DNA from: Kutzneria chonburiensis
GTDB taxonomy: Bacteria; Actinomycetota; Actinomycetes; Mycobacteriales; Pseudonocardiaceae
Length of the DNA stretch: 64,000 bases
Reading direction: 5' to 3'
Assembly (NCBI RefSeq): GCF_028622115.1
Contig: NZ_CP097263.1
Location: 5,270,001 to 5,334,000 of the forward strand
Within the stretch, counting starts at the first letter, position 1; each line of letters opens with the position of its first letter. Below are positions 4,510 through 16,762 of this stretch, in pieces. The notes beneath the pieces were generated by a model, which did not search any database, had not been told where the DNA came from, and saw only the letters and a list, made by a program, of their open reading frames with translations. Position numbers and translations under genes: made by a program.

Positions 4510-5145
4510 GTGCGTCACCACACCTTGAAGATCGGCTTCGTCGCTGCGGCGCTTATAGCGGTCGCAACGGCCTGCTCGACGCCGCCATCGGTCGGTGGCA
4601 CGCCCGCGCCGCAGACCACCGGGGTCAATGCCGAGGGCAAGTTGCCGTCCGGTGCCCCCCACGTGGCGAAACCACTCGACGTTTCGCGCGCACAAGCCAC
4701 ACCTTGCATCACATTGACCGCTGCACAGATCTCCGCCCTCGGTATTGTCGCCACCGGAAAATCCAGTCAATCCGCCGTCGGCCCCGCCTGCGATTGGGCG
4801 GACACATCAGCGACCCCGTCACCCATGAGCATCGGCATCCGCTTCGTCACCAACAGCACGGGCGGCCTCAGCTCGCTCTATGTTCAGGCCGAGTCGCTCA
4901 AGAAAGTCGGCGGCTACTTCGAGCCCATTGACCCGATTCAGGGATATCCGGCCCTGCTGTACTCCCAGTACGACGACCGGAAGGCTCGGACGAACGCCGG
5001 TTGCAACCTGGGCATCGGGGTCAGCGACACGCTCCAGATCGCCGTCGGCGTCGTCGTTGGAGCCCCCTCTTCGCAGTCCGATCCGTGCACGATCGACAAG
5101 AAAGCCGCCGACATGATCATGACCAATCTGAAGGCGGGGTCGTGA
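4510..5145 (+). CDS. DUF3558 family lipoprotein
   Basis: From the GTG at 4510 (GAGG site 8 bp upstream) the product is 211 residues. A short basic start (VRHHTLK), a hydrophobic segment and the lipobox VATAC predict a cell-surface lipoprotein. The body has paired Cys residues and the CDW and NLGIGV segments seen in DUF3558, a family of actinobacterial lipoproteins of unknown function often found beside PPE/EspG genes. Its stop overlaps the start of the PPE-like gene by one base (TGATG). Confidence 0.8.
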   Translation: MRHHTLKIGFVAAALIAVATACSTPPSVGGTPAPQTTGVNAEGKLPSGAPHVAKPLDVSRAQATPCITLTAAQISALGIVATGKSSQSAVGPACDWADTSATPSPMSIGIRFVTNSTGGLSSLYVQAESLKKVGGYFEPIDPIQGYPALLYSQYDDRKARTNAGCNLGIGVSDTLQIAVGVVVGAPSSQSDPCTIDKKAADMIMTNLKAGS

Positions 5146-6407
5146 TGGGAACACTTGGACCGGGCGATATCCACAATGCCCTGACTCAGGGGCCTGGCAC
5201 TGACAGTTTCCAGTTGGCCAAGCAGGCCTCGAATTCGCTGGCGGCCTCTCATCAGGAGCGGGAGAGCCAGGCTATGGCGCTGGTGATGAAGATGGGCTCC
5301 GCCTGGACGGGGGATGCTTCCGAGGCGGCGCAGGCGGGGGCGGCGCCGTTGTTGCGGGCGTTTCGGGATGGGCAGGAGGCGCTGTCGACGCATCAAGATC
5401 TGATGGGGCGGCAGACGGAGTCGTTCGGGGTGGCCAAGACGAGCGTGCACGACGTGCCGAACCAACCGCCGTCGGCGTCGTTCGGGGACATGGTGAGCGA
5501 CGCGAGCGGGGTGAGCCTGTTCACGGGCGGCGGCTACCTGAACAAGGTGCAGGACTGGTCGGAGAAGGCCAACGCGAACGTGGCGGCCTACTCGAACTAC
5601 GCGAACGCGAGCACGTACAACCGGGCGAACATGCCGAACGAGTACGGGGATCCGAGCGGGTCGAGCTCGGATGTGGCGCTGGCGTCCCAGCAACCGGGGC
5701 CGAACGGGCCGGGGCCGGGGGGACCGAGCGGGGTGCACGAGCCGGGAGGCACGGGCGGACCGAACGCGCCGGTGTCGCACTACAGCGGCGGACCGGGCTC
5801 GTCGCAATGGACGCCGAACGGCGTCGGAACGCCGGGGCCGGGAACGGGCAGCCTGCCGAACACGGGCACGGGATCGGGGACCACGAGCACCCAGGGCTGG
5901 CCGGGTGGACCGTCGACGCCGGGCACCGGCGGCGGCTGGCCCACGGGCGGCGGTCCAGGCGGTCCAGGCACGGGGCCGGGCACCGGAATGGGAGGCGGCG
6001 CTGACGGCGGTTTCCCGGGCGGAGGCGCGCCCTTCGGCGGAGGCGTGGGCGGATACGGCACAGACGGCAGTGGCAGCGCGGCCGGTGGGACAAGAGGCCT
6101 GCGTGGCGGTGGCATGGCCGGCACCGGAGGCGGCGGCACGGCCCGAGGTGGCGGCGTGGCCGAGGGCAAGGTCGGCCCGGGAGCCCGTGCCAGCACGGGA
6201 ATGCCGGGCGCGGGCGGTACGACGGTGGCGGCAGCACGGCCCGGCACGCCTGGCGCACAGGGTGCGAGCGGTATGCCCGGCGGGGCCCAAGGCCGCAAGG
6301 AGGAGGACAAGGAGCACAAGTCGGCGGCCTACCTGGAGGACGACTACTCCGACGAGCTCATCGGCGAACTCCCCCGCACCACACCGACGGTGATCGGCCT
6401 GGACTGA
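5145..6407 (+). CDS. PPE-domain-like ESX substrate with Gly/Pro-rich linker
   Basis: A 420-residue protein. The first 180 residues are helical, with a Trp-x-Gly turn (WTG at 54-56) and a VAAYSNYANASTYNRANMP segment like the end of a PPE domain. Residues from about 183 to 380 are a low-complexity Gly/Pro/Ser region, and the last 25 are acidic and conserved-looking. There is no N-terminal signal peptide, as expected for type VII substrates. A YxxxD motif (Tyr396-Asp400) lies in the C-terminal tail. The downstream EspG-like gene is the expected chaperone. Confidence 0.78.
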   Translation: MGTLGPGDIHNALTQGPGTDSFQLAKQASNSLAASHQERESQAMALVMKMGSAWTGDASEAAQAGAAPLLRAFRDGQEALSTHQDLMGRQTESFGVAKTSVHDVPNQPPSASFGDMVSDASGVSLFTGGGYLNKVQDWSEKANANVAAYSNYANASTYNRANMPNEYGDPSGSSSDVALASQQPGPNGPGPGGPSGVHEPGGTGGPNAPVSHYSGGPGSSQWTPNGVGTPGPGTGSLPNTGTGSGTTSTQGWPGGPSTPGTGGGWPTGGGPGGPGTGPGTGMGGGADGGFPGGGAPFGGGVGGYGTDGSGSAAGGTRGLRGGGMAGTGGGGTARGGGVAEGKVGPGARASTGMPGAGGTTVAAARPGTPGAQGASGMPGGAQGRKEEDKEHKSAAYLEDDYSDELIGELPRTTPTVIGLD

Positions 6408-6439: not shown

Positions 6440-6937
6440 GTGCTGAGAGAGCGCGTCGAGTTGTCGATGGATGCGCTGAAGGCGTTCTGGCGGTGGGAAG
6501 GCCACGACCGGATGCCGGCGGTGCTGGTGTCCACTGTGGAATGGATGGACGACGACAGCCGGCACGAGGCCGACCGGAGCGTGCTCGAAGAGCTGGCTGG
6601 ACGGGGCTTGCTGGCCGGCGGTGGGGTGCCGGAAGAGGTGCGGGCGACGTTTCATCTGCTGACCAGGCCGGAGTACGAGGTGTTCGGGTGGATCACCTCG
6701 CCACGAAAGACGACGGGGGTGCTGGCGGCGGCCGGCGCCAAAGAAGCCGCGCTGGTGGTTCGTGAAGGCGAAACGGCCTGGCTGTCGCCGATCCGGACGG
6801 ACGAAGTGGTCGAAGCGGTGGTGGCGCAACTGCCGGCGCTGCCAGCGGCTCACGGCCGCTCGATGAACGTGTGCGAAGCCGACTTCACCGGAGCCCGACC
6901 CCAGGAGGAAAGCGGCTGGAACGGCTTCAAGCCATGA
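6440..6937 (+). CDS. EspG-family ESX chaperone, N-terminal part (frameshifted)
   Basis: A 165-residue product beginning RERVELSMDALKAFWRWEG, the start of the EspG family of cytosolic chaperones that bind PPE substrates of type VII secretion. It carries the family's central beta-sheet segments (EVFGWITSP; ETAWLSPIRTDEVVEAVVAQ) but stops abruptly after WNGFKP, about two-thirds of the normal 250 residues. The remaining third continues in the -1 frame. One extra base in the string aagccatg (6929-6936) would restore a continuous GFKAMTEAHDVRALKALL reading, so a 1-bp deletion or an assembly error is likely. Confidence 0.75.
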   Translation: MLRERVELSMDALKAFWRWEGHDRMPAVLVSTVEWMDDDSRHEADRSVLEELAGRGLLAGGGVPEEVRATFHLLTRPEYEVFGWITSPRKTTGVLAAAGAKEAALVVREGETAWLSPIRTDEVVEAVVAQLPALPAAHGRSMNVCEADFTGARPQEESGWNGFKP

Positions 6938-7197
6938 CCGAAGCGCACGATGTGCGGGCGCTGAAGGCGTTGCTGGGAGAACCGGTGCTGGGAGTCAGCC
7001 AACTGTGGGCGGCGGCCCGCGGCACGGACGGCCGGCTGCACCAAGTGGAAACACCGCTGACCGTAAGGGATACGGCCGAAGGCCGCTGGCTCACGCAGAC
7101 CACGACGACGTCCGGCCAACGCTGGGCGACGGCGACCCCGGCCAGCCCACAGCTGCTGACCAACAAGCTGTACGAGACTCTCCGCAAACTCGGCTAA
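6934..7197 (+). CDS. EspG-family ESX chaperone, C-terminal part
   Basis: From the ATG at 6934 (ATGA overlap with the stop of the preceding frame) this encodes 87 residues. They correspond to the C-terminal third of EspG, with the LLGEPVLGVSQLWAAARG strand-helix unit and the final SGQRWATATPASPQLLTNKLYETLRKL. The overlap could allow coupled translation into two polypeptides, but the upstream extension of this frame and the family length argue for one ancestral gene broken by a frameshift. It ends tail-to-tail with the small gene on the other strand, with a 4-bp overlap. Confidence 0.7.
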   Translation: MTEAHDVRALKALLGEPVLGVSQLWAAARGTDGRLHQVETPLTVRDTAEGRWLTQTTTTSGQRWATATPASPQLLTNKLYETLRKLG

Positions 7198-7520
7198 CGA
7201 CGCCACCACGAACGACGTGGCGGCGCGAGATGTCCCTGTGCTACCAACCAAAGCCGGAAGCGTTCGGCGTCATCCCGCATCCGCACTTCGACGGTTTTGG
7301 GATGCCCCAAAGCAAACTCGGCGAACAACGGCCCGAACCGGTCGCCAAGCGCGTCGGCGAGGTCGGGCCGCAGGTGCCAAATAACCCTACGGCGCTTGGA
7401 CAACAGGGCATCGGCCTGCGCACGCAGCCGACCGGAATCAAAACCACTAGGCGCAGGCCCATCGGCCAACAGAGCGCGCAGCAACGAAGCCTGCTGGGCG
7501 GCGAGCTCCGAGCGGCTCAT
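7194..7520 (-). CDS. Small SCO6045-like protein, probable MNIO partner
   Basis: A 108-residue cytosolic protein starting [21 protein letters not shown], with a C-terminal [16 protein letters not shown] segment. It resembles the small hypothetical protein found next to DUF692 genes in streptomycetes (SCO6045-like). Its ATG overlaps the DUF692 stop by 4 bp, so the two are translationally coupled. MNIO enzymes of known pathways need a partner protein that binds the substrate. The Gln/Leu-rich helical start recalls the DUF2063 partner family. The partner role is inference from gene order and weak similarity. Confidence 0.7.
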
Positions 7521-8323
7521 GTCAGCACGGCGCGAATGGCCGCGAGCTCGGCGGCGAGCTCCTCGTCGGACGGATAGTCGTCGTCCCGTTCGAGCAACAC
7601 GCCGGGCGGATCGACCCGGGCGCACAGCTCGCCCAGCAGGTCGAGCACGGCACCGGGCATCGCATGGGCATGGGTGTCGTGATAGAGCCCGTCCCGCTCC
7701 ACGCCACCGGCAACGTGCACATAAGCCAAGCGCTCCAACGGAAGCGTGGCCAGGAACTCGGCCGGGTCGGTGCCGATGTTGTGGGCGTTGGCATGAAGAT
7801 TGGCCACGTCGATCAGCAGCCGGCAGTCGGTCCGCTCGACCAGCGAAGCCAGGAACTGGCCCTCGGTCATCTCGGCGTCCGGCCAGTCGATCAACGCGGC
7901 CACGTTCTCCAGCGCCAACGGCACGGGCAGCGCCCGCTGCGCCTGGAGAACGTTGGCCACCAACACATCCAGGGCCTCACGCGTACGCGGCACCGGCATC
8001 AGGTGCCCGGCGTCGAGACCGCCGGCCCGCACGAAACACACATGGTCGCTGACCAGAGGGGCCTCCAACGCCGAGGCCACGGCCCCGAGGTGCTCGACCC
8101 GGGCCATCTCCAACGGCTCGGCCCCGCCCAGCGACAGGGAAACGGCGTGCGGCAGCACCGGCACGCCGCGTTCCCGCAGCAGTCGCAGCGACTCGGGCAG
8201 GTCGCCGTGACCGAGGTTCTCGGCGACCACCTCGACGAAGTCGACATCGGGCAGACGCTCGACGGTCAGATCGATCTCCGGCCGCCACCCGATGCCGACT
8301 CCGAGCCGTGGCAAGGACTTCAT
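7517..8323 (-). CDS. DUF692 (MNIO) family iron-dependent oxidative enzyme
   Basis: A 268-residue TIM-barrel protein of the DUF692/MNIO family, whose characterised members (MbnB, TglH, bufferin enzymes) oxidatively modify Cys or other residues of peptides using a multinuclear iron centre. The expected metal-ligand positions are present: [10 protein letters not shown] (His59), VSDH (His94), LEN (Glu139), [13 protein letters not shown] (Asp172 onward), YVHVAGG (His203), YHDTHAH (Asp216, His218) and LERDDDY (Glu245). The ATG at 8323 overlaps the TIGR04222 gene's stop as ATGA. An in-frame TTG at 8332 is less likely. The substrate is probably the upstream protein's Cys-rich tail (inference). Confidence 0.9.
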
Positions 8324-9213
8324 CCGCCACAACCCCCGCCGCCACCGCAGCCGCCGCCCCCACCGCAGCTGCTCCCGCCACCGCCGCCGCTGCTACAGCC
8401 GCCCCCGCCGCCCCAGAAGTAGCCACCGGCCGCGGCGGCCCCGACGCCCGCACCCGAGCGCCGCCGCGGCGGCTCGATCGACCTCTGGAGGGCCTCGGCG
8501 GTCCGGGCGTCCGGGTACGCGGTGACGCCGATCAGGGCGACCGCCATAGCCGCGTCACGGACGGTGCCGCGACGCAACTCCCGCAGCGCCCGGCCGCCGG
8601 CGAGGGTGCGCAGCTGCCGGTTCCGCTGGAAGTTCAGCGTGCAGATCAGCAGCACGATCGTGGCCAGCAGGGACAGCACGAGGAAGGCGACGGGCCGGTG
8701 CAGGCCGAAGCCGTTGGCGAACCGCACGCAGCCCACGATCATCACGGCCAGCAACGGCACCGTCGAGGCGTAGCGGAAGCGAGCCGCGACGTGCGCCGGC
8801 ACCAGCAGGCCGAGGTCGGCCAACTCGTGGCCGATGTCCCACAGCGTCGACCGGCTGCGCAGGTACTTGGTGATGGCCCGCAGCGTCTGGCTGGCAGCAG
8901 CCCGAGCCAGGATCTGCGCGGCCAGCGGACTCGGCGCCACGGCCTGCCCGGTGGCCCGGACCGTGCCGGAGCTGTCGGCCCGCAGCGCGCCAGCTGCCAG
9001 CAGTTCGGCCGCGGCGGCCTGGACCGCGCGGTCCGGGCCGGCGGCGAGAAAGCCGGTCTCCACCGCGGCCGGCCGCCATACACCGGTATGAACGCGGCCG
9101 AAAAATGTCGGCAGAATTCTGATCAGCACGGCCAGCGCCAACGCGCAGACGATACCGATCCAATAGATTTGCAGGAACTGTTCTCCGGACAGTCCCCACG
9201 GCTCCTGGCCCAT
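8320..9213 (-). CDS. TIGR04222 membrane protein with Gly/Cys-rich C-terminal tail
   Basis: A 297-residue protein with a membrane segment at about 12-34, a soluble middle domain (45-145), two further membrane segments at about 149-168 and 174-194, and another soluble stretch. It ends in a tail (265-297) made almost only of Gly, Ser and Cys. Cys273, 283, 289 and 295 are present, the last three spaced by exactly five glycines each, and the protein ends CGG. TIGR04222 is defined as a domain preceding such low-complexity Cys-bearing tails. It is the first gene of a fully overlapping unit with the MNIO enzyme and the small partner. Confidence 0.85.
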
Positions 9214-9484: not shown

Positions 9485-9916
9485 TCAGGCTTCGTCCGTC
9501 TGGGGGACGAGGCGCAGGGAAATACTGTTGATGCAATACCGCTGGTCGGTCGGAGTGGGGTAGCCCTCGCCCTCGAAGACGTGGCCGAGGTGGCTGTGGC
9601 AGGTGGCGCAGAGGACCTCCACGCGGACCATGCCCAGCGCGCGGTCCTCACGCAGGATCACGCTGTCGCCGGCCAGCGGCGAGAAGAACGACGGCCAGCC
9701 GCAGTGCGAGTCGAACTTGGTGTCGCTGCGGAACAGCTCGGCCCCGCAGGCCCGGCACTCGTAGACGCCTTCGGTCTTGGTGTCGGTGTACTCGCCGACG
9801 AACGGGCGCTCGGTGCCGGCCTTGCGCAGCACGGCGAACTCCTGCGGGCTCAGCTGGGCCCGCCACTCCTGCTCCGACTTGACGACCTTGGGGGTGGTGC
9901 CGACGACGGGTTCCAT
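9485..9916 (-). CDS. msrB: Peptide-methionine (R)-S-oxide reductase MsrB
   Basis: The 143-residue product is a complete MsrB, reducing methionine-R-sulfoxide in oxidised proteins. It has the zinc-binding Cys pairs (ECRACG and CATC), the HSHLGHVFEGEG segment and the catalytic Cys128 in RYCINS. The start at 9916 (MEPVVGTTPKVVKSEQEWRAQL) fits the family length. The gene lies alone on the minus strand. The 271 bp between its end and the TIGR04222 start (9214-9484) show no gene or structure I can support. Confidence 0.95.
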   Translation of the reverse strand: MEPVVGTTPKVVKSEQEWRAQLSPQEFAVLRKAGTERPFVGEYTDTKTEGVYECRACGAELFRSDTKFDSHCGWPSFFSPLAGDSVILREDRALGMVRVEVLCATCHSHLGHVFEGEGYPTPTDQRYCINSISLRLVPQTDEA

Positions 9917-11626: not shown

Positions 11627-11766
11627 GTGGCTCACTTGCGCTTCAAGGCCCACGTGAGTGGCTCAGGTGGGCTTTCCAGCCCACCTGAGTGGCTCACTTG
11701 GCATTTCCAGCCCATGTGAGTGGCTCAGGTGGCGATAGAAGCCAAATGAGCCACTCACGTGGCTTA
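11624..11766. repeat. 31-bp phased repeat between convergent genes
   Basis: The 11-mer tgagtggctca recurs at 11624, 11655, 11686 and 11717, exactly 31 bp apart. Its inverse, tgagccactca, is at 11747, 30 bp after the last. Between the cores are variants of cttg..cttTcca.gcccac. The unit from 11665 to 11684 forms a perfect 10-bp stem (aggtgggct-type arms around ttcc). The first core begins with the TGA stop of the GntR gene, and the array runs up to the patatin stop. It may act as a bidirectional terminator. Five spaced cores are more than termination needs. Confidence 0.8.
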
Positions 11767-13461
11767 GACGTCCGGCGTGATGCGCATGGCGACGGAGGGC
11801 TTGGGGTCGGCGCCGTCGACGAAGGTCTCGCCGCAGCGCAGCCACGCGTCGGCGCCGTCGAGGAGCTGGGCGGTGGCGGCGGCGGCCTCGGCCGACCACG
11901 CCTCCGCGTGACCGTCGGCCGCACCGCCGGAGGCGAGCCACTCCTGGTACTCGGTGGTGAAGGCCTCACGCATGCTGATGTGGCCGTCGTCCGGCGCGAC
12001 GAGGTTGCGCTGGAGCATGCGCATGGCGATCAGGTAGCGCTCGACCCAGTGCTTGCGGAAGTCGAAGTCGACGAGCGACCGGCCGGCATCCGCGCCCTTG
12101 GCGTCGATGGCGGAGATGGTCGCGGGCGGCATGGTGAGGTTGAAGCCGCCCTCGCCGTCGGTCAGGTCGATGGCCCGCACCCGGTCGTTGAACCCGGGCA
12201 GCCGGGCCTGCAGGGTGTCGTGCCAGTTGAGCCCAGCGCCGAGAATGCCCCCGAGGTAGCCGAGCAGCCCGGGCGAGGTCGGGACCCGCTCGGGGTCGAC
12301 CGGCGGCTGGTCGCTCTGCGATGACGGCACCTTCGGTCCGAAGTAGAGGCCGAAGGTGGGCCGGGTCGGCAGCCACGCGTCGAAGAACTGGATGGGGAAG
12401 TTGCTGGAGATGCCGCCGTCGGCGAACCAGTGCCGGGCCACGGTCGACCCATCCACCGTCCACAGTGGAACGGCGGAGAGCAGCACGGGAAACGTGAGGC
12501 TCATCCGGGTCGCGACCAGCACGGGCAGGTCGTCGGTCGGCAGCGCGCGGAGTTCGCCGGCGCCGGGATAGACCACGGGACTGGTGCGCCCCAGGTGATC
12601 AAGCACCTCGGCCGGGAACAGCTTGCGCCATTCGTCCAGGCTGAACAGGTAGTTGACATCCGAGTACGCCTCGTTGGGCAGCCGCACCGGCCGCCCGCCG
12701 GTGACGTCGGTAGTCATCAGCTGGAGGTTGATGCCCTTGGCCTTGAGGTCGCTGAAGGTCAGCGGGTCCGCGACGTCCTTGCCGGCGACGATCTGGATCT
12801 GCTTGTACAGCCAGTCGGCCAGCGCATCGGGATCACGCGGCCGCTGCTTGTGGCCGATGCACATGCCGTAGTAGTTCTTCGGCAGATCCCGCACCAGGCG
12901 CACCACCGACCACACCAGTGCCACGGTGAGCCCGAGTCCGCCGGTGATCACCGTGCCGACCACGAACACGACCCAGCCGCTCCAGCCGATGCCGCCGAGC
13001 GTGCCGCCGGCGCTGGCCACGAGCAGCCAGCCGAGTCCGAACGCGACCGCCGCCGACAGCAGCAGCGGCAGGAACAGCCAGCGCAGCAGCCCCCACAGAT
13101 ACGTGACGGCCTTGGCGCCGGTGGTCCGCTTTGCCTGCGCCGCAAGCAGAATCCGGAACAGCGGCTTGGCCTGCCTTGTCGGCCGGAACTGCCGGACGAT
13201 CAGGCCGGGCTCCTGGAGCTGCTGGCGTAAGGCCTGCAAACGCTCAAAACCGCCGCTGTCACGGGCGTACTCGGCGGCGGCGGTCACCGCGGCCGCCATC
13301 GCGCCCGCGGACGCCCCGCCGATCGAGCGGAACCGGAATGTCTTGTACAGCTCCAGAACCGCCGCCGGGTAGGCGACGCCGCTGGTGATCCCGCCCTGCA
13401 TCACCAGGTCGCACTCGGTGGGGCGAGCCGGGATCCCCCCGGGATTGGTCATGACCGACAC
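11764..13461 (-). CDS. Patatin-like phospholipase with internal membrane hairpin
   Basis: A 565-residue serine lipid acyl hydrolase. The nucleophile is Ser51 in GGASAGAMA (GxSxG) and the dyad Asp348 is in FADGGISSNFP; the oxyanion Gly-rich segment is VMQGGITSG near 20-28. Between the two catalytic residues there are two strongly hydrophobic segments (about 122-148 and 159-187), so the catalytic fold is interrupted by a membrane hairpin. The 565-residue length exceeds the usual 300 of a bare patatin domain. It would act on membrane lipids from the inner face. It is convergent with the GntR gene. Confidence 0.85.
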   Translation of the reverse strand: MSVMTNPGGIPARPTECDLVMQGGITSGVAYPAAVLELYKTFRFRSIGGASAGAMAAAVTAAAEYARDSGGFERLQALRQQLQEPGLIVRQFRPTRQAKPLFRILLAAQAKRTTGAKAVTYLWGLLRWLFLPLLLSAAVAFGLGWLLVASAGGTLGGIGWSGWVVFVVGTVITGGLGLTVALVWSVVRLVRDLPKNYYGMCIGHKQRPRDPDALADWLYKQIQIVAGKDVADPLTFSDLKAKGINLQLMTTDVTGGRPVRLPNEAYSDVNYLFSLDEWRKLFPAEVLDHLGRTSPVVYPGAGELRALPTDDLPVLVATRMSLTFPVLLSAVPLWTVDGSTVARHWFADGGISSNFPIQFFDAWLPTRPTFGLYFGPKVPSSQSDQPPVDPERVPTSPGLLGYLGGILGAGLNWHDTLQARLPGFNDRVRAIDLTDGEGGFNLTMPPATISAIDAKGADAGRSLVDFDFRKHWVERYLIAMRMLQRNLVAPDDGHISMREAFTTEYQEWLASGGAADGHAEAWSAEAAAATAQLLDGADAWLRCGETFVDGADPKPSVAMRITPDV

Positions 13462-13566: not shown

Positions 13567-14262
13567 TTACGGCAGGTTGGCCACCAGCTCCACCGGCGGC
13601 ACCCGCGTCCCGGTGTAGAACGGGATCTCCACGCGGACGTGCCGGCGGGCCTCGGTCTCGCGCAAGTGGCGCATCAGGTCGACGATGCGGTGCAGCTCAT
13701 CGGCCTCGAAGGCGAGGATCCACTCGTAGTCGCCCAGCGCGAACGAGGCCACCGTGTTGGCCCGCACGTCCGGGTAGTCGCGGGCCTCCTTGCCGTGGTC
13801 GGCGAGCATCTTGCGGCGCTCGTCGTCGGGCAGCAGGTACCACTCGTACGACCGCACGAAGGGGTACACGCAGAGGTAGTTCTTCGGCTCCTCGCCGGCC
13901 AGGAAGGCCGGGATGTGGCTCTTGTTGAACTCGGCCGGCCGGTGCAGCGCGACCTGGCTCCACACCGGGGTCGAGGCCCGCCCGACGGCGGTGGTGCGGC
14001 GGAAGTCGGCGTAGGCCGCCTGCACCTGCTCGATCTCCTCGGCGTGCCACCAGATCATGTAGTCGGCGTCGGCCCGCAGGCCGGACACGTCGTACACGCC
14101 GCGCACCACGACGCCCTTGCTCTCAAGGGAGTCGAAGAACTCCTGGGCCTCGGACGCCGCCGGCCCGCGGTCCTCGCCGAGCCGTCCGGGTTCGCTGCGG
14201 AACACCGACCACATCGTGTAGCGGATGGTGTCGTTCAGTTCGTTGTAGTTCAAGCGGGCCAT
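13567..14262 (-). CDS. hemQ: Coproheme decarboxylase HemQ (chlorite dismutase family)
   Basis: A 231-residue HemQ starting [21 protein letters not shown]. It decarboxylates coproheme III to heme b in the coproporphyrin-dependent pathway of Gram-positive bacteria. The Tyr-bearing [18 protein letters not shown] segment and the proximal-His region [14 protein letters not shown] are present. The distal Arg that marks true chlorite dismutases is not evident. Its start overlaps the hemG reading frame by 13 bp, and it is last in the hemE-hemG-hemQ operon. Confidence 0.93.
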
Positions 14263-15692
14263 GAGCCCATGGTCCCACCGGACCCACGGTGTCTGCCCAA
14301 GAGGTGTGCAGCCACACGTGCCGCAGCTGCCTGACTGGTCGCAATGCAGGCCGGGACGCCGACACCGTGCAGGCTGGCACCGGCCACGGCCAGCCCCGGA
14401 AGTTCGGCCACGGCGGTCTCGATGGCGGTCACGCGGCTGAGGTGCCCGACGCCGTACTGCGGCAGCCCGCCGCCCCACCGCGTGACGGCGGAGTCGATCG
14501 GCGCGGCGGTGATGCCGGTGAGCTCGGCCAGGTCGGCCAGCACGGTGCGGACCAGCTCGTCGTCGTCGACCTGGAGCGCGGCGGTCTCGCCGGCCTTGCC
14601 GACCGAGCCCCGGATGACCAGCGTCTCCTCGCCGTCCAGGTGGGCCCACTTGCGGCTGGAGAAGGTGAACGCCTTGGCGGTGAAGCGGGTGCCGTCGTGC
14701 CAGCGGTCGTCGCCGGCGATGAGCACGCCGGAGTTCCGCGGCAGGGCCACGTCGGCCGGCAGCACCAGCGAGATGACGGCCATGGACGCCAGCTCGATGC
14801 CGCCGAACGCGGCCGCGGCCACCGGCGCGACGTCGGCGAGCAGCTTCGCGGCCGCCGGGGCGGGCACGGCCAGCACCACACCGTCGACGTCCAGGGCATG
14901 CTCGCCGAACTCCACGGTCCAGCCGGCCTCGCGCCGCCGCAGCCGACGGACCGGGCGGCCGTACTCGATGGTGGCGTCGGCCACCTTGGCCAGCCGGTCG
15001 GTGAGCGAGCCGAGGCCGTCGCGCAGCGTGCCGAACACCGGCGGCCTCTTCGCGCCCTGCTGCGGCGGCGCCGGGACCAGCGCGGACGCCGCGGCAACGA
15101 GCGAACCGGCGCCACGGTCCAGCGCCCCGGCGAGCGGAGCCATGGTCGCGCGCAGGCTGAGGCCGTCGGCGTGACCGGCGTAGACGCCGCCGAGCAGCGG
15201 GTCGACCAGCCGGTTGGTCACCTCGGGCCCGAACCGCTCGCGCAGCAGCTTGCCGACGGAGATGTCCTCGCCGTCGAGGTGGATGGGCGGCAGCGCCGGC
15301 TCGTGGGCCACCCGGGCCACCGCGGCGTCGGACAGCACGCCGCGGACCGCGTCGGCCGAGGCCGGCACGCCCTGGAAGGTGTGTCCGGGCAGTGGGTTGA
15401 TCCGCCCGGCGGCCCGGACCGTTGCCGACGCCGAGGTCGGGTGGACCAGGTCGTCGGCCATGCCGATCTCGGTGATCAGCTCGGTCGCCTCGCGGCGGCG
15501 GGCCAGGAAGGCCTCCGCGCCGACGTCGTACGAGCGGCCGCCCAGCTCCACGGTGCGGAGCTTGCCGCCGACGCGGTCCGTCTGCTCGATGACGGTGATG
15601 GTGGCCAGCGGTCCGAGCAGCTTGCGCAGCCGGTAGGCGGCGGCGAGGCCGGACACGCCGCCACCGACGACGGCGACATGGGGCTCGGTCAT
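14250..15692 (-). CDS. hemG: Coproporphyrinogen/protoporphyrinogen oxidase (HemY/HemG type)
   Basis: A 480-residue FAD-dependent oxidase with an N-terminal dinucleotide-binding motif ([15 protein letters not shown] at about 8-22) and the [17 protein letters not shown] segment typical of the HemY family. The C-terminal [18 protein letters not shown] stretch is the FAD-binding end. With HemQ next door, the likely reaction is oxidation of coproporphyrinogen III to coproporphyrin III. Its GTG/ATG region overlaps the hemE end (15689-15692). Confidence 0.92.
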
Positions 15693-16762
15693 GACAGCGA
15701 ATGCACCAGCTCTGTGACTCGGGTGACGACCGTGGGATCGGTGTCCGGCAGGACGCCGTGGCCGAGGTTGAAGATGTGCCCGGCGGCCGCCTTGCCCTCG
15801 GCGACGATCCGGCGCACCTCGCGCTCCAGCACGTCCCAGTCGGCGAACAGCAGCGCCGGGTCGAGGTTGCCCTGCACGACCGGCACCGGCCCGTCCGGAC
15901 GGGCCGCGGTCAGCCGCCGTACCGCCTCGTCCAGCGGAATCCGCCAGTCCACGCCGACCACGTCGGCCCCGGCGTCACGCATGGCCACCAGCAGCTCGCC
16001 GGTGCCGACGCCGAAGTGGATCCGGGGAATGCCGGCGTCGCGCACGCTGTCGAACACCCGGCTGGAGTGCGGCAGCACGTATTCGCGGTAGTCCCGCTCG
16101 GACAACGCGCCGGCCCACGAGTCGAACAGCTGCATCGCGTCGATGCCGGCCTCGACCTGCACCCGCAGGAACTCGGTGGTGATGCCGGCCAGCTTGGCCA
16201 GCAGCGAGTGCCACACGTCGGGCGAGCTGTGCATGAGCGCCTTGGTGCGCTCGTGGTTCTTCGACGGGCCGCCCTCGACCAGGTACGAGGCCAGCGTGAA
16301 CGGCGCGCCGGCAAAGCCGATCAGCGGGGTGTCACCTAGCTCAGCGGTCAGCAGCCGGATCGTGTCGGCGACCGCGGCGACCTGCTCGGCGGCCAGGTCG
16401 GGCAGCGCGTCCACGTCGGCCTTGGTGCGCACCGGGTTGGCCACCACCGGGCCGACGCCGCCGACGATCTCCACGCCGATACCGGCGGCGTAGACCGGGA
16501 CGACGATGTCGCTGTACAGGATGGCGGCGTCCACGCCGTGCCGCCGGACCGGCTGGAGAGTGATCTCCGCCGCCAGATCCGGTGTGAGACACGACTCGAG
16601 CATCGGGATGCCCTCGCGCACCTTCTTGTACTCGGGCAGCGACCGGCCGGCCTGGCGCATGAACCAGACGGGGGTCCGGGTCGGCTCGCCGCCCCGGGCC
16701 GCGACCAGCAGGGGAGCGTCTGAGAGGTCGCGGCGGGCCGAGACCGGAGCAGTGTTCGTCAT
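15689..16762 (-). CDS. hemE: Uroporphyrinogen decarboxylase HemE
   Basis: A 357-residue HemE, which removes four carboxylates from uroporphyrinogen III to give coproporphyrinogen III. The family signatures [15 protein letters not shown] near the N-terminus and the later [16 protein letters not shown] are clear. It opens the operon hemE-hemG-hemQ, whose genes overlap and carry consecutive steps. The 116-bp region upstream is shared with the divergent DUF3000 gene. Confidence 0.95.

What the first reader, a model, noticed from the sequence alone, without database searches (positions are those of the whole stretch)
7194..9213. Coupled MNIO / TIGR04222 / SCO6045-like unit: possible oxidative modification of a membrane protein's own tail
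Three genes overlap by 4 bp each, in the order substrate-like membrane protein, DUF692/MNIO enzyme, small partner. MNIO enzymes of known pathways modify Cys or backbone atoms of short leader-bearing peptides with help from a partner protein. Here no small peptide gene is present. The only Cys-rich segment is the C-terminal tail of the TIGR04222 membrane protein. If the tail is the substrate, a membrane-anchored protein would be modified in place at the cytoplasmic face rather than as a free peptide, which I believe is not a characterised arrangement.
Basis: partly seen in the sequence, partly recalled or inferred. Interest (0 to 1): 0.85.

Follow-up and report, generated by a model that had tools for sequence, protein, structure and literature searches.

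The report
Enzyme operon for cysteine-tailed membrane protein
A three-gene bacterial operon appears to make a membrane protein with a flexible glycine/serine/cysteine tail plus an iron enzyme and helper likely to oxidise that tail; the idea is already in print, but comparison across genomes suggests that the tail faces the inside of the cell and that the same tail is hung on several different anchors.

Summary
In detail: three minus-strand genes at 7194-9213 with two ATGA overlaps encode a TIGR04222 membrane protein with a Gly/Ser/Cys tail, a PF05114 MNIO and a 108-aa protein. The central idea and the arrangement were published in 2025 (PMC12452194), so it is not new as a concept; the chemistry is untested. 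My survey adds: (1) of 315 class genomes 90 have TIGR04222, 79 MNIO, 66 both; all 66 nearby pairs share a strand. (2) The Cys tail tracks the enzyme: 48 of 65 genomes with MNIO, 1 of 22 without; tail ORFs on the MNIO strand at 50 of 89 places, 0 on the other strand, 0 of 56 control strands. (3) Some MNIO loci without TIGR04222 hang such a tail on single-helix micro-proteins or heads without a helix. (4) Charges, 22 paralogues lacking the first helix and the micro-anchors put the tail in the cytoplasm, against the published periplasmic prediction. The small gene is fused to MNIO elsewhere and is most likely a minimal PME-type 2 partner. Against: 14 loci of one family keep MNIO with only a tail-less TIGR04222 nearby.

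The parts
8320..9213 (-). TIGR04222 membrane protein (297 aa): hydrophobic helix ~10-37, mixed domain ~50-150 (winged-helix-like by eye), hydrophobic hairpin ~152-194, Arg-rich segment, disordered tail
   Evidence: NCBIfam 109.8 bits; AF2 mean pLDDT 84.8, low from about residue 250 on
8323..8412 (-). Gly/Ser/Cys tail, 4 Cys; proposed MNIO substrate
   Evidence: only such ORF end in the 64 kb by the rule
7517..8323 (-). MNIO (MbnB_TglH_ChrH, formerly DUF692), 268 aa
   Evidence: PF05114 281 bits; His59, His94, Glu139, Asp172, Asn175, His203, Asp216, His218, Glu245 each at frequency 1.00 (rounded) in 150 aligned sequences, this one included
7194..7520 (-). 108-aa minimal DUF2063-like / PME-type 2 partner
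   Evidence: homologous domain fused to MNIO in 33 of 69 survey loci; AF2 pLDDT 90.6; first PDB fold hit MbnC, weak; weak DUF2063 hits in 16 of 47 homologues, none in this protein itself; 54% identical to the 115-aa protein of Saccharothrix sp. NRRL B-16314 (L032)
9485..9916 (-). MsrB (SelR), same strand, upstream neighbour; not claimed as part of the mechanism
   Evidence: found in 69 of 80 related loci, upstream on the same strand in 69 of 69

Best explanation
The operon makes a membrane-tethered, cytosol-facing Gly/Ser/Cys tail and the enzyme pair that modifies it. The TIGR04222 protein inserts N-out/C-in, leaving its disordered tail in the cytoplasm. The MNIO, with the 108-aa DUF2063-like protein as partner, oxidises tail Cys residues in Cys-Gly/Cys-Ser context, by analogy 4 electrons each, to a heterocycle (5-thiooxazole or oxazolone/thioamide), giving an array of soft-metal or redox-active sites at the inner membrane face. 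Shown here: the genes, their association, tail conservation and tail-MNIO co-occurrence. Inferred: cytosolic side (about 0.8), partner role (about 0.85), tail as substrate (0.7, the figure below), its chemistry (about 0.5) and a metal or redox role (about 0.4).
For: Co-occurrence: TIGR04222 in 90, MNIO in 79, both in 66 of 315 genomes (Fisher 3e-34, not corrected for kinship); 66 of 116 TIGR04222 places within 8 kb of MNIO, 66 of 66 same strand. Cys tail against MNIO in genome: 48 of 65 vs 1 of 22 (Fisher 6e-9, same caveat); the one exception is not a Gly/Ser tail. Tail ORF on the MNIO strand at 50 of 89 places, 0 of 89 on the other strand, 0 of 56 control strands (a first, looser rule gave 49 and 1 of 89). 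Carriers differ while the tail stays: 3-TM and TM1-less TIGR04222, eight 1-TM micro-proteins, two heads without a hydrophobic helix. Tail alphabet, from the first Cys on: G 47, S 33, C 16 %, Arg and Val 0.1 % in 64 tails. Side: 31 of 31 3-TM proteins in A2 have more K/R on the tail side; 22 TM1-less ones have no helix candidate in the whole open frame before the hairpin; micro-anchors have 0-1 K/R before and 4-8 after the helix. Partner: fusion to MNIO, MbnC as first fold hit. FonBC, another MNIO pair, tolerated only Ala in place of Gly after Cys (PMC12668002).
Against: 39 of 89 MNIO places have no such tail by the rule (three score 367-370 bits to PF05114 and look like another MNIO type, not tested; one, L144, has tails that the rule missed). 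14 loci of one family (f5, by inference Streptomyces) keep an MNIO-partner fusion with only a tail-less TIGR04222 nearby. Of six unlinked TIGR04222-like places read in such genomes, four end Gly-rich with one Cys and two do not. Cys flanked by G/S is expected in a G/S tail, so that is not independent evidence. The partner's fold hit is weak (E 3.3, TM 0.48). The TM2-TM3 loop has as many K/R per residue (1.32 per 10) as the stretch after TM1 (1.15), so the charge rule leans on the N-terminus and the post-TM3 segment. Published AlphaFold-based reading puts the tail in the periplasm. No mass-spectrometry data.
Confidence: 0.7

Rival explanations
1. The tail is modified but ends up outside the membrane, as Antoine et al. 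propose, acting like a bufferin that buffers copper in the periplasmic space.
For: Published reading of AlphaFold models and predicted TM topology (PMC12452194); bufferins are exported.
Against: Positive-inside count 31 of 31 (stretches of unequal length); 22 TM1-less forms start with a domain lacking any helix candidate and end after a hairpin; eight 1-TM micro-anchors have Arg-rich flanks on the tail side and at most one Lys before the helix; weak homology to DUF2207_C, whose domain order implies a cytosolic C-terminus (topology by inference).
Confidence: 0.15
2. The MNIO acts on something else (an unlinked or unannotated peptide, or the TIGR04222 body), and the tail Cys are plain thiols for metal binding, disulfides or sensing.
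For: 14 loci with MNIO but only a tail-less TIGR04222; MNIO places with no tail found (39 of 89).
Against: Cys tails are nearly absent from TIGR04222 where the genome has no PF05114 match (1 of 23 places), and different carriers next to MNIO share the tail.
Confidence: 0.2
3. Low-complexity noise: Cys arises by drift in GGC/GGT repeats.
For: Cys codons TGC/TGT are one step from Gly codons (one search lists the codons of this tail).
Against: Other one-step products (Arg, Val, Ala, Asp) are 0.1-2.2 % against 14-16 % Cys; six Gly-rich tails in MNIO-less genomes have 0.8 % Cys and the window's Gly-rich PPE-like protein has none in 420 aa. The tails were cut at their first Cys, which raises the Cys share a little.
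Confidence: 0.03

Closest known systems
TIGR04222 - MNIO - PME-type 2 loci (Antoine et al. 2025, PMC12452194)
   Same: Same three families; tail proposed as substrate. Their PME-type 2 model A is a 115-aa protein of Saccharothrix sp. NRRL B-16314; the L032 partner comes from that strain, has 115 aa and is 54% identical to this one (accession not compared).
   Different: They place the tail in the periplasm and find PME-type 2 in at least 10% of TIGR04222 BGCs; here a partner is adjacent at 80 of 80 close relatives, the side is argued to be cytosolic, and other carriers of the tail are found.
Bufferins / oxazolins / fontiphorin (captophorins): BufABC, HvfABC, FonABC
   Same: MNIO plus DUF2063-type partner acting on Cys-rich repeats; among NCBIfam models the MNIO scores best against BufB (202 bits, cut-off 310).
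   Different: No evident Sec signal peptide, no room for an RRE domain in the 108-aa partner, substrate stays on a membrane protein.
DybA/NedA DAG-RiPPs and >30 kDa C-terminal substrates of ChrH-type MNIOs (PMC12636315)
   Same: MNIO modification at the C-terminus of larger or membrane-bound products.
   Different: Lipoprotein route or different MNIO subfamily; exported products; different C-terminal motif.
DUF2207 membrane proteins
   Same: The TIGR04222 model hits one in the own genome weakly (33 bits).
   Different: DUF2207 has an extra N-domain; the own-genome copy ends without a Gly/Cys tail; a direct profile comparison found only a 21-column match.

Membership tests
MNIO (PF05114) | PF05114 match over cut-off | tested here: met
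   281 bits vs 25
MNIO (PF05114) | Conserved His/Asp/Glu/Asn residues of the multi-iron site (which residues bind iron is recalled; the motifs align with solved DUF692, TglH-type and MbnB chains) | tested here: met
MNIO (PF05114) | Multi-iron oxidase activity | not testable with these tools
   needs protein
Bufferin maturase BufB (NF050167) | Equivalog cut-off 310 bits | tested here: not met
   202 bits
TIGR04222 (near_uncomplex) | Cut-off 43 bits | tested here: met
   109.8 bits
PME-type 1 partner (DUF2063 + RRE) | PF09836 match and full RRE domain | tested here: not met
   window protein has no DUF2063 hit; 108 aa, four helices
PME-type 2 partner | Gene follows MNIO, no DUF2063 signature, relative of the published examples | tested here: met
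   position, no signature, 54% identity to the L032 protein that matches published model A in strain and length
PME-type 2 partner | DUF2063-like fold (3DEE, TglI) | tested here: inconclusive
   first fold hit MbnC, E 3.3; 3DEE not among the 18 hits; second aligner not available
RiPP / captophorin | Modified Cys (5-thiooxazole) in product | not testable with these tools
   needs mass spectrometry and NMR
RiPP / captophorin | Sec signal peptide on precursor | tested here: inconclusive
   no K/R before the first helix, or no first helix; no signal-peptide predictor was run

The most novel reading that the evidence does not exclude
MNIO-partner pairs in Actinomycetes serve a portable C-terminal Gly/Ser/Cys(/His) tail that evolution hangs on interchangeable anchors (3-TM and 2-TM TIGR04222, 1-TM micro-proteins, heads without a helix), kept on the cytosolic side; the modified tail is a resident inner-face metal or redox device and not an exported peptide.
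Probability: 0.5. Interest if true: 0.78.

Novelty: new variant of a known kind. Interest (0 to 1): 0.58.

Why it matters
MNIO products known to me are peptides or exported/lipidated proteins. A tail modified and kept on the cytosolic face of a resident membrane protein would be a different use of the chemistry, and the single-helix micro-proteins (83-119 aa from their last Met) make it testable in E. coli without handling a multi-spanning protein. It would also correct the predicted side of the tail, which decides whether one looks for export and copper buffering or for an internal role.

Tried and rejected
Tried without result: PDB profile search with the partner alignment (best E 0.23, unrelated); fold search with the TIGR04222 model (no hit better than E 3.4); PHROGs (none); Pfam for the two helix-less heads (none); profile comparison with a single DUF2207 sequence, a 21-column match after the hairpin, probability 5.5, so the DUF2207 link rests on the TIGR04222 model's hits and is weak; a literature link HemQ-MNIO (0 papers). 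Considered and set aside: a heme function from the neighbourhood. HemQ lies in the fetched stretch at 25 of 36 f5 places and 44 of 80 named relatives, but at none of 14 f75, 24 f76, 6 f2, 2 f3 and 5 other places, so it is lineage-limited. Counting Cys alone misled (Cys of the domain's own end were counted), so I changed to the [GS]C[GS] rule; the ORF rule was likewise tightened after (there 49 same-strand, 1 opposite-strand of 89). Limits: one search scored only 8 candidates per genome, so TIGR04222 counts are lower bounds; its list was cut below the cut-off. Rows dropped: 9 of 116 TIGR04222 places (matches ending before profile position 175) before the tail count; of 92 MNIO rows two fragments of one frame (G359) were left out and one place (G301) was not fetched, leaving 89. 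One search used the 35 rows of A2, a subset I picked from the extracted proteins; the 22 TM1-less ones were chosen for lacking a helix near the start, and two of them come from one strain.

Full report
WHAT IS THERE. The window lies in a 10.4 Mb genome; the closest named relatives of the MNIO are Kutzneria. On the minus strand, 9213 to 7194, three genes overlap by ATGA twice: TIGR04222 protein, MNIO, 108-aa protein. The genome has one MNIO and one TIGR04222 over the cut-off, plus one weak hit (33 bits) that is a DUF2207 protein.

RELATIVES. A scan of genome contigs gave 80 loci, the best 80 of 150 confirmed. All 80 have the small gene beside MNIO; with the start codon nearest the MNIO stop, 72 of 80 overlap it by 4 or 8 bp (56 and 16). 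TIGR04222 ends beside MNIO in 78 of 80. Several loci carry two to four TIGR04222 copies in a row before one MNIO (for example L022, L024, L026). In the 59 loci (a first, less sensitive pass) the last 60 residues hold a median of 5 Cys (range 2-9), and 302 of 306 Cys are followed by Gly, Ser or Ala; since the tail is G/S-rich this flanking is expected.

SURVEY. In 315 genomes of the class (names not given by the tool), TIGR04222 over the cut-off is in 90, PF05114 in 79, both in 66; Fisher 3e-34 without correction for kinship. 24 genomes have TIGR04222 only and 13 MNIO only. TIGR04222 counts are lower bounds, since 8 candidates per genome were scored. Of 116 TIGR04222 places, 66 lie within 8 kb of MNIO, 66 of 66 on the same strand, 37 before and 29 after it. 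An earlier, thinner sample of 246 phylum genomes gave TIGR04222 over the cut-off in 10 and MNIO in 14; comparing the two lists, both occur in 9. Of 107 places whose tail could be read (87 genomes), at least two [GS]C[GS] motifs occur in 45 of 65 near MNIO, 8 of 19 elsewhere in MNIO genomes (G270, G303, G309, G359, G412, G435, G437, G529), and 1 of 23 in genomes without a PF05114 match; by genome 48 of 65 against 1 of 22. The single exception is not a Gly/Ser tail. Eighteen of the 20 places near MNIO without the motif are tail-less copies that follow MNIO, all in family f5 by the tables, which I take to be Streptomyces. Scoring all ORF ends in the loci of 89 MNIO places, 50 have a Gly/Ser/His/Cys tail on the MNIO strand and 0 on the other; 56 strands of 28 loci from genomes without a PF05114 match have 0; the 64 kb window has one, this one. 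The first, looser rule gave 49 and 1.

THE TAIL IS THE SHARED PART. Among MNIO loci in which no TIGR04222 was found nearby, the same kind of tail sits on other carriers: eight single-helix micro-proteins (L196, L197, L199, L201, L202, L215, L218, L220), 83-119 aa from their last Met, each with 3-9 Cys and 3-6 His, and two heads of about 450 aa with no Pfam match and no helix candidate (best 19-residue hydropathy 1.26 and 1.39; L195, L198). Within the TIGR04222 tails Gly, Ser and Cys make up about 95 % of residues.

SIDE OF THE MEMBRANE. The AF2 model has three long hydrophobic helices and a disordered tail. K+R per 10 residues: 0.13 before TM1, 1.15 after TM1, 1.94 before TM2, 1.32 in the TM2-TM3 loop, 2.41 after TM3. 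In 31 of 31 proteins of A2 with TM1, K+R of the TM1-TM2 side plus the tail side exceed those of the N-terminus plus loop, but the first are about twice as long. Twenty-two Cys-tailed copies begin with the first domain and have no TM candidate in the whole open frame before the hairpin (22 of 22), so their tail should share the side of that N-domain. Micro-anchors have 0-1 K/R before and 4-8 within 25 residues after the helix (8 of 8). All this says cytoplasm. Antoine et al. say periplasm, from AlphaFold models and predicted topology. I know of no test in a cell.

THE PARTNER. In 33 of 69 survey loci the small domain and MNIO are one ORF, in 26 separate, in 10 not detected. The model (pLDDT 90.6, four helices) has as its first of 350,542 PDB chains MbnC, the MbnB partner, but at E 3.3 and TM 0.48. 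DUF2063 is the commonest weak Pfam hit (16 of 47, best E 0.0014), absent for the window's own protein. The L032 homologue (54% identical, 115 aa, Saccharothrix sp. NRRL B-16314) matches in strain and length the protein that Antoine et al. show as PME-type 2 model A; I did not compare accessions. I take it as a minimal PME-type 2 partner without an RRE domain. The label SCO6045-like: from memory, SCO6045 is itself a UPF0276/DUF692 protein, so the label probably refers to its C-terminal part; not tested. SCO6045 is listed as 3.01-fold up under oxidative stress in S. coelicolor and deregulated in the hbpS-senS-senR mutant (PMC4991794, passages).

LITERATURE. PMC12452194: abstract, introduction, sections on TIGR04222, other precursors and partners, and passages elsewhere. 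It proposes TIGR04222 tails as substrates for subsets, notes that more than a quarter lack C-proximal Cys and that 490 of 1372 genomes with TIGR04222 lack MNIO. PMC12668002: passages. PMC12636315: abstract and passages. PMC5183585: one passage calling a TIGR04222 protein a ribosomal peptide in a predicted cluster. I saw no paper on cytosolic tails, on 1-TM tail micro-proteins or on modification of TIGR04222 in the listings of searches of the held open-access library; the supplements of PMC12452194 could not be read.

AGAINST. 39 of 89 MNIO places lack a tail by my rule. Fourteen loci of family f5 hold the MNIO-partner fusion and only a tail-less TIGR04222. Six further TIGR04222-like places in such genomes were read (L204-L209): four end in a Gly-rich stretch with one Cys near the end (L204, L205, L207, L208), two (L206, L209) do not. 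So in that lineage the substrate is unsettled.

VERDICT.

Noticed in passing
window 6440-6937 and 6871-7197 (+): An EspG-family gene appears as two overlapping ORFs in different frames (profile 1-151 and 158-243): frameshift, decay or sequencing error; next to a Gly-rich PPE-like gene (about 5145-6407). Described only.
   Followed up: no
window 13567-16762 (-): hemE (URO-D), an amine-oxidase-family gene (HemG/HemY-like) and HemQ (chlorite-dismutase family) lie on the same strand upstream; HemQ also neighbours MNIO at 25 of 36 f5 places. Meaning unknown.
   Followed up: partly
L088, L089, L104, L110 and others: DUF4142 and PTH2-type (PF01981) peptidyl-tRNA hydrolase genes accompany MNIO at 17 and 24 of 36 f5 places; the published 'adjamnio-II' is similar but is given as PF01195.
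   Followed up: partly
L196, L197, L199, L201, L202, L215, L218, L220: Single-helix micro-proteins with Cys/Gly/Ser/His tails next to MNIO; small enough to be missed by annotation (not checked).
   Followed up: yes
L013, L014, L015, L032, L039, L044, L045, L048, L049: A middle TIGR04222 copy without tail Cys sits between two Cys-tailed copies in these Saccharothrix arrays.
   Followed up: no
window 11764-13461 (-): Patatin-like phospholipase gene between the heme genes and the asparaginase/MsrB genes.
   Followed up: no
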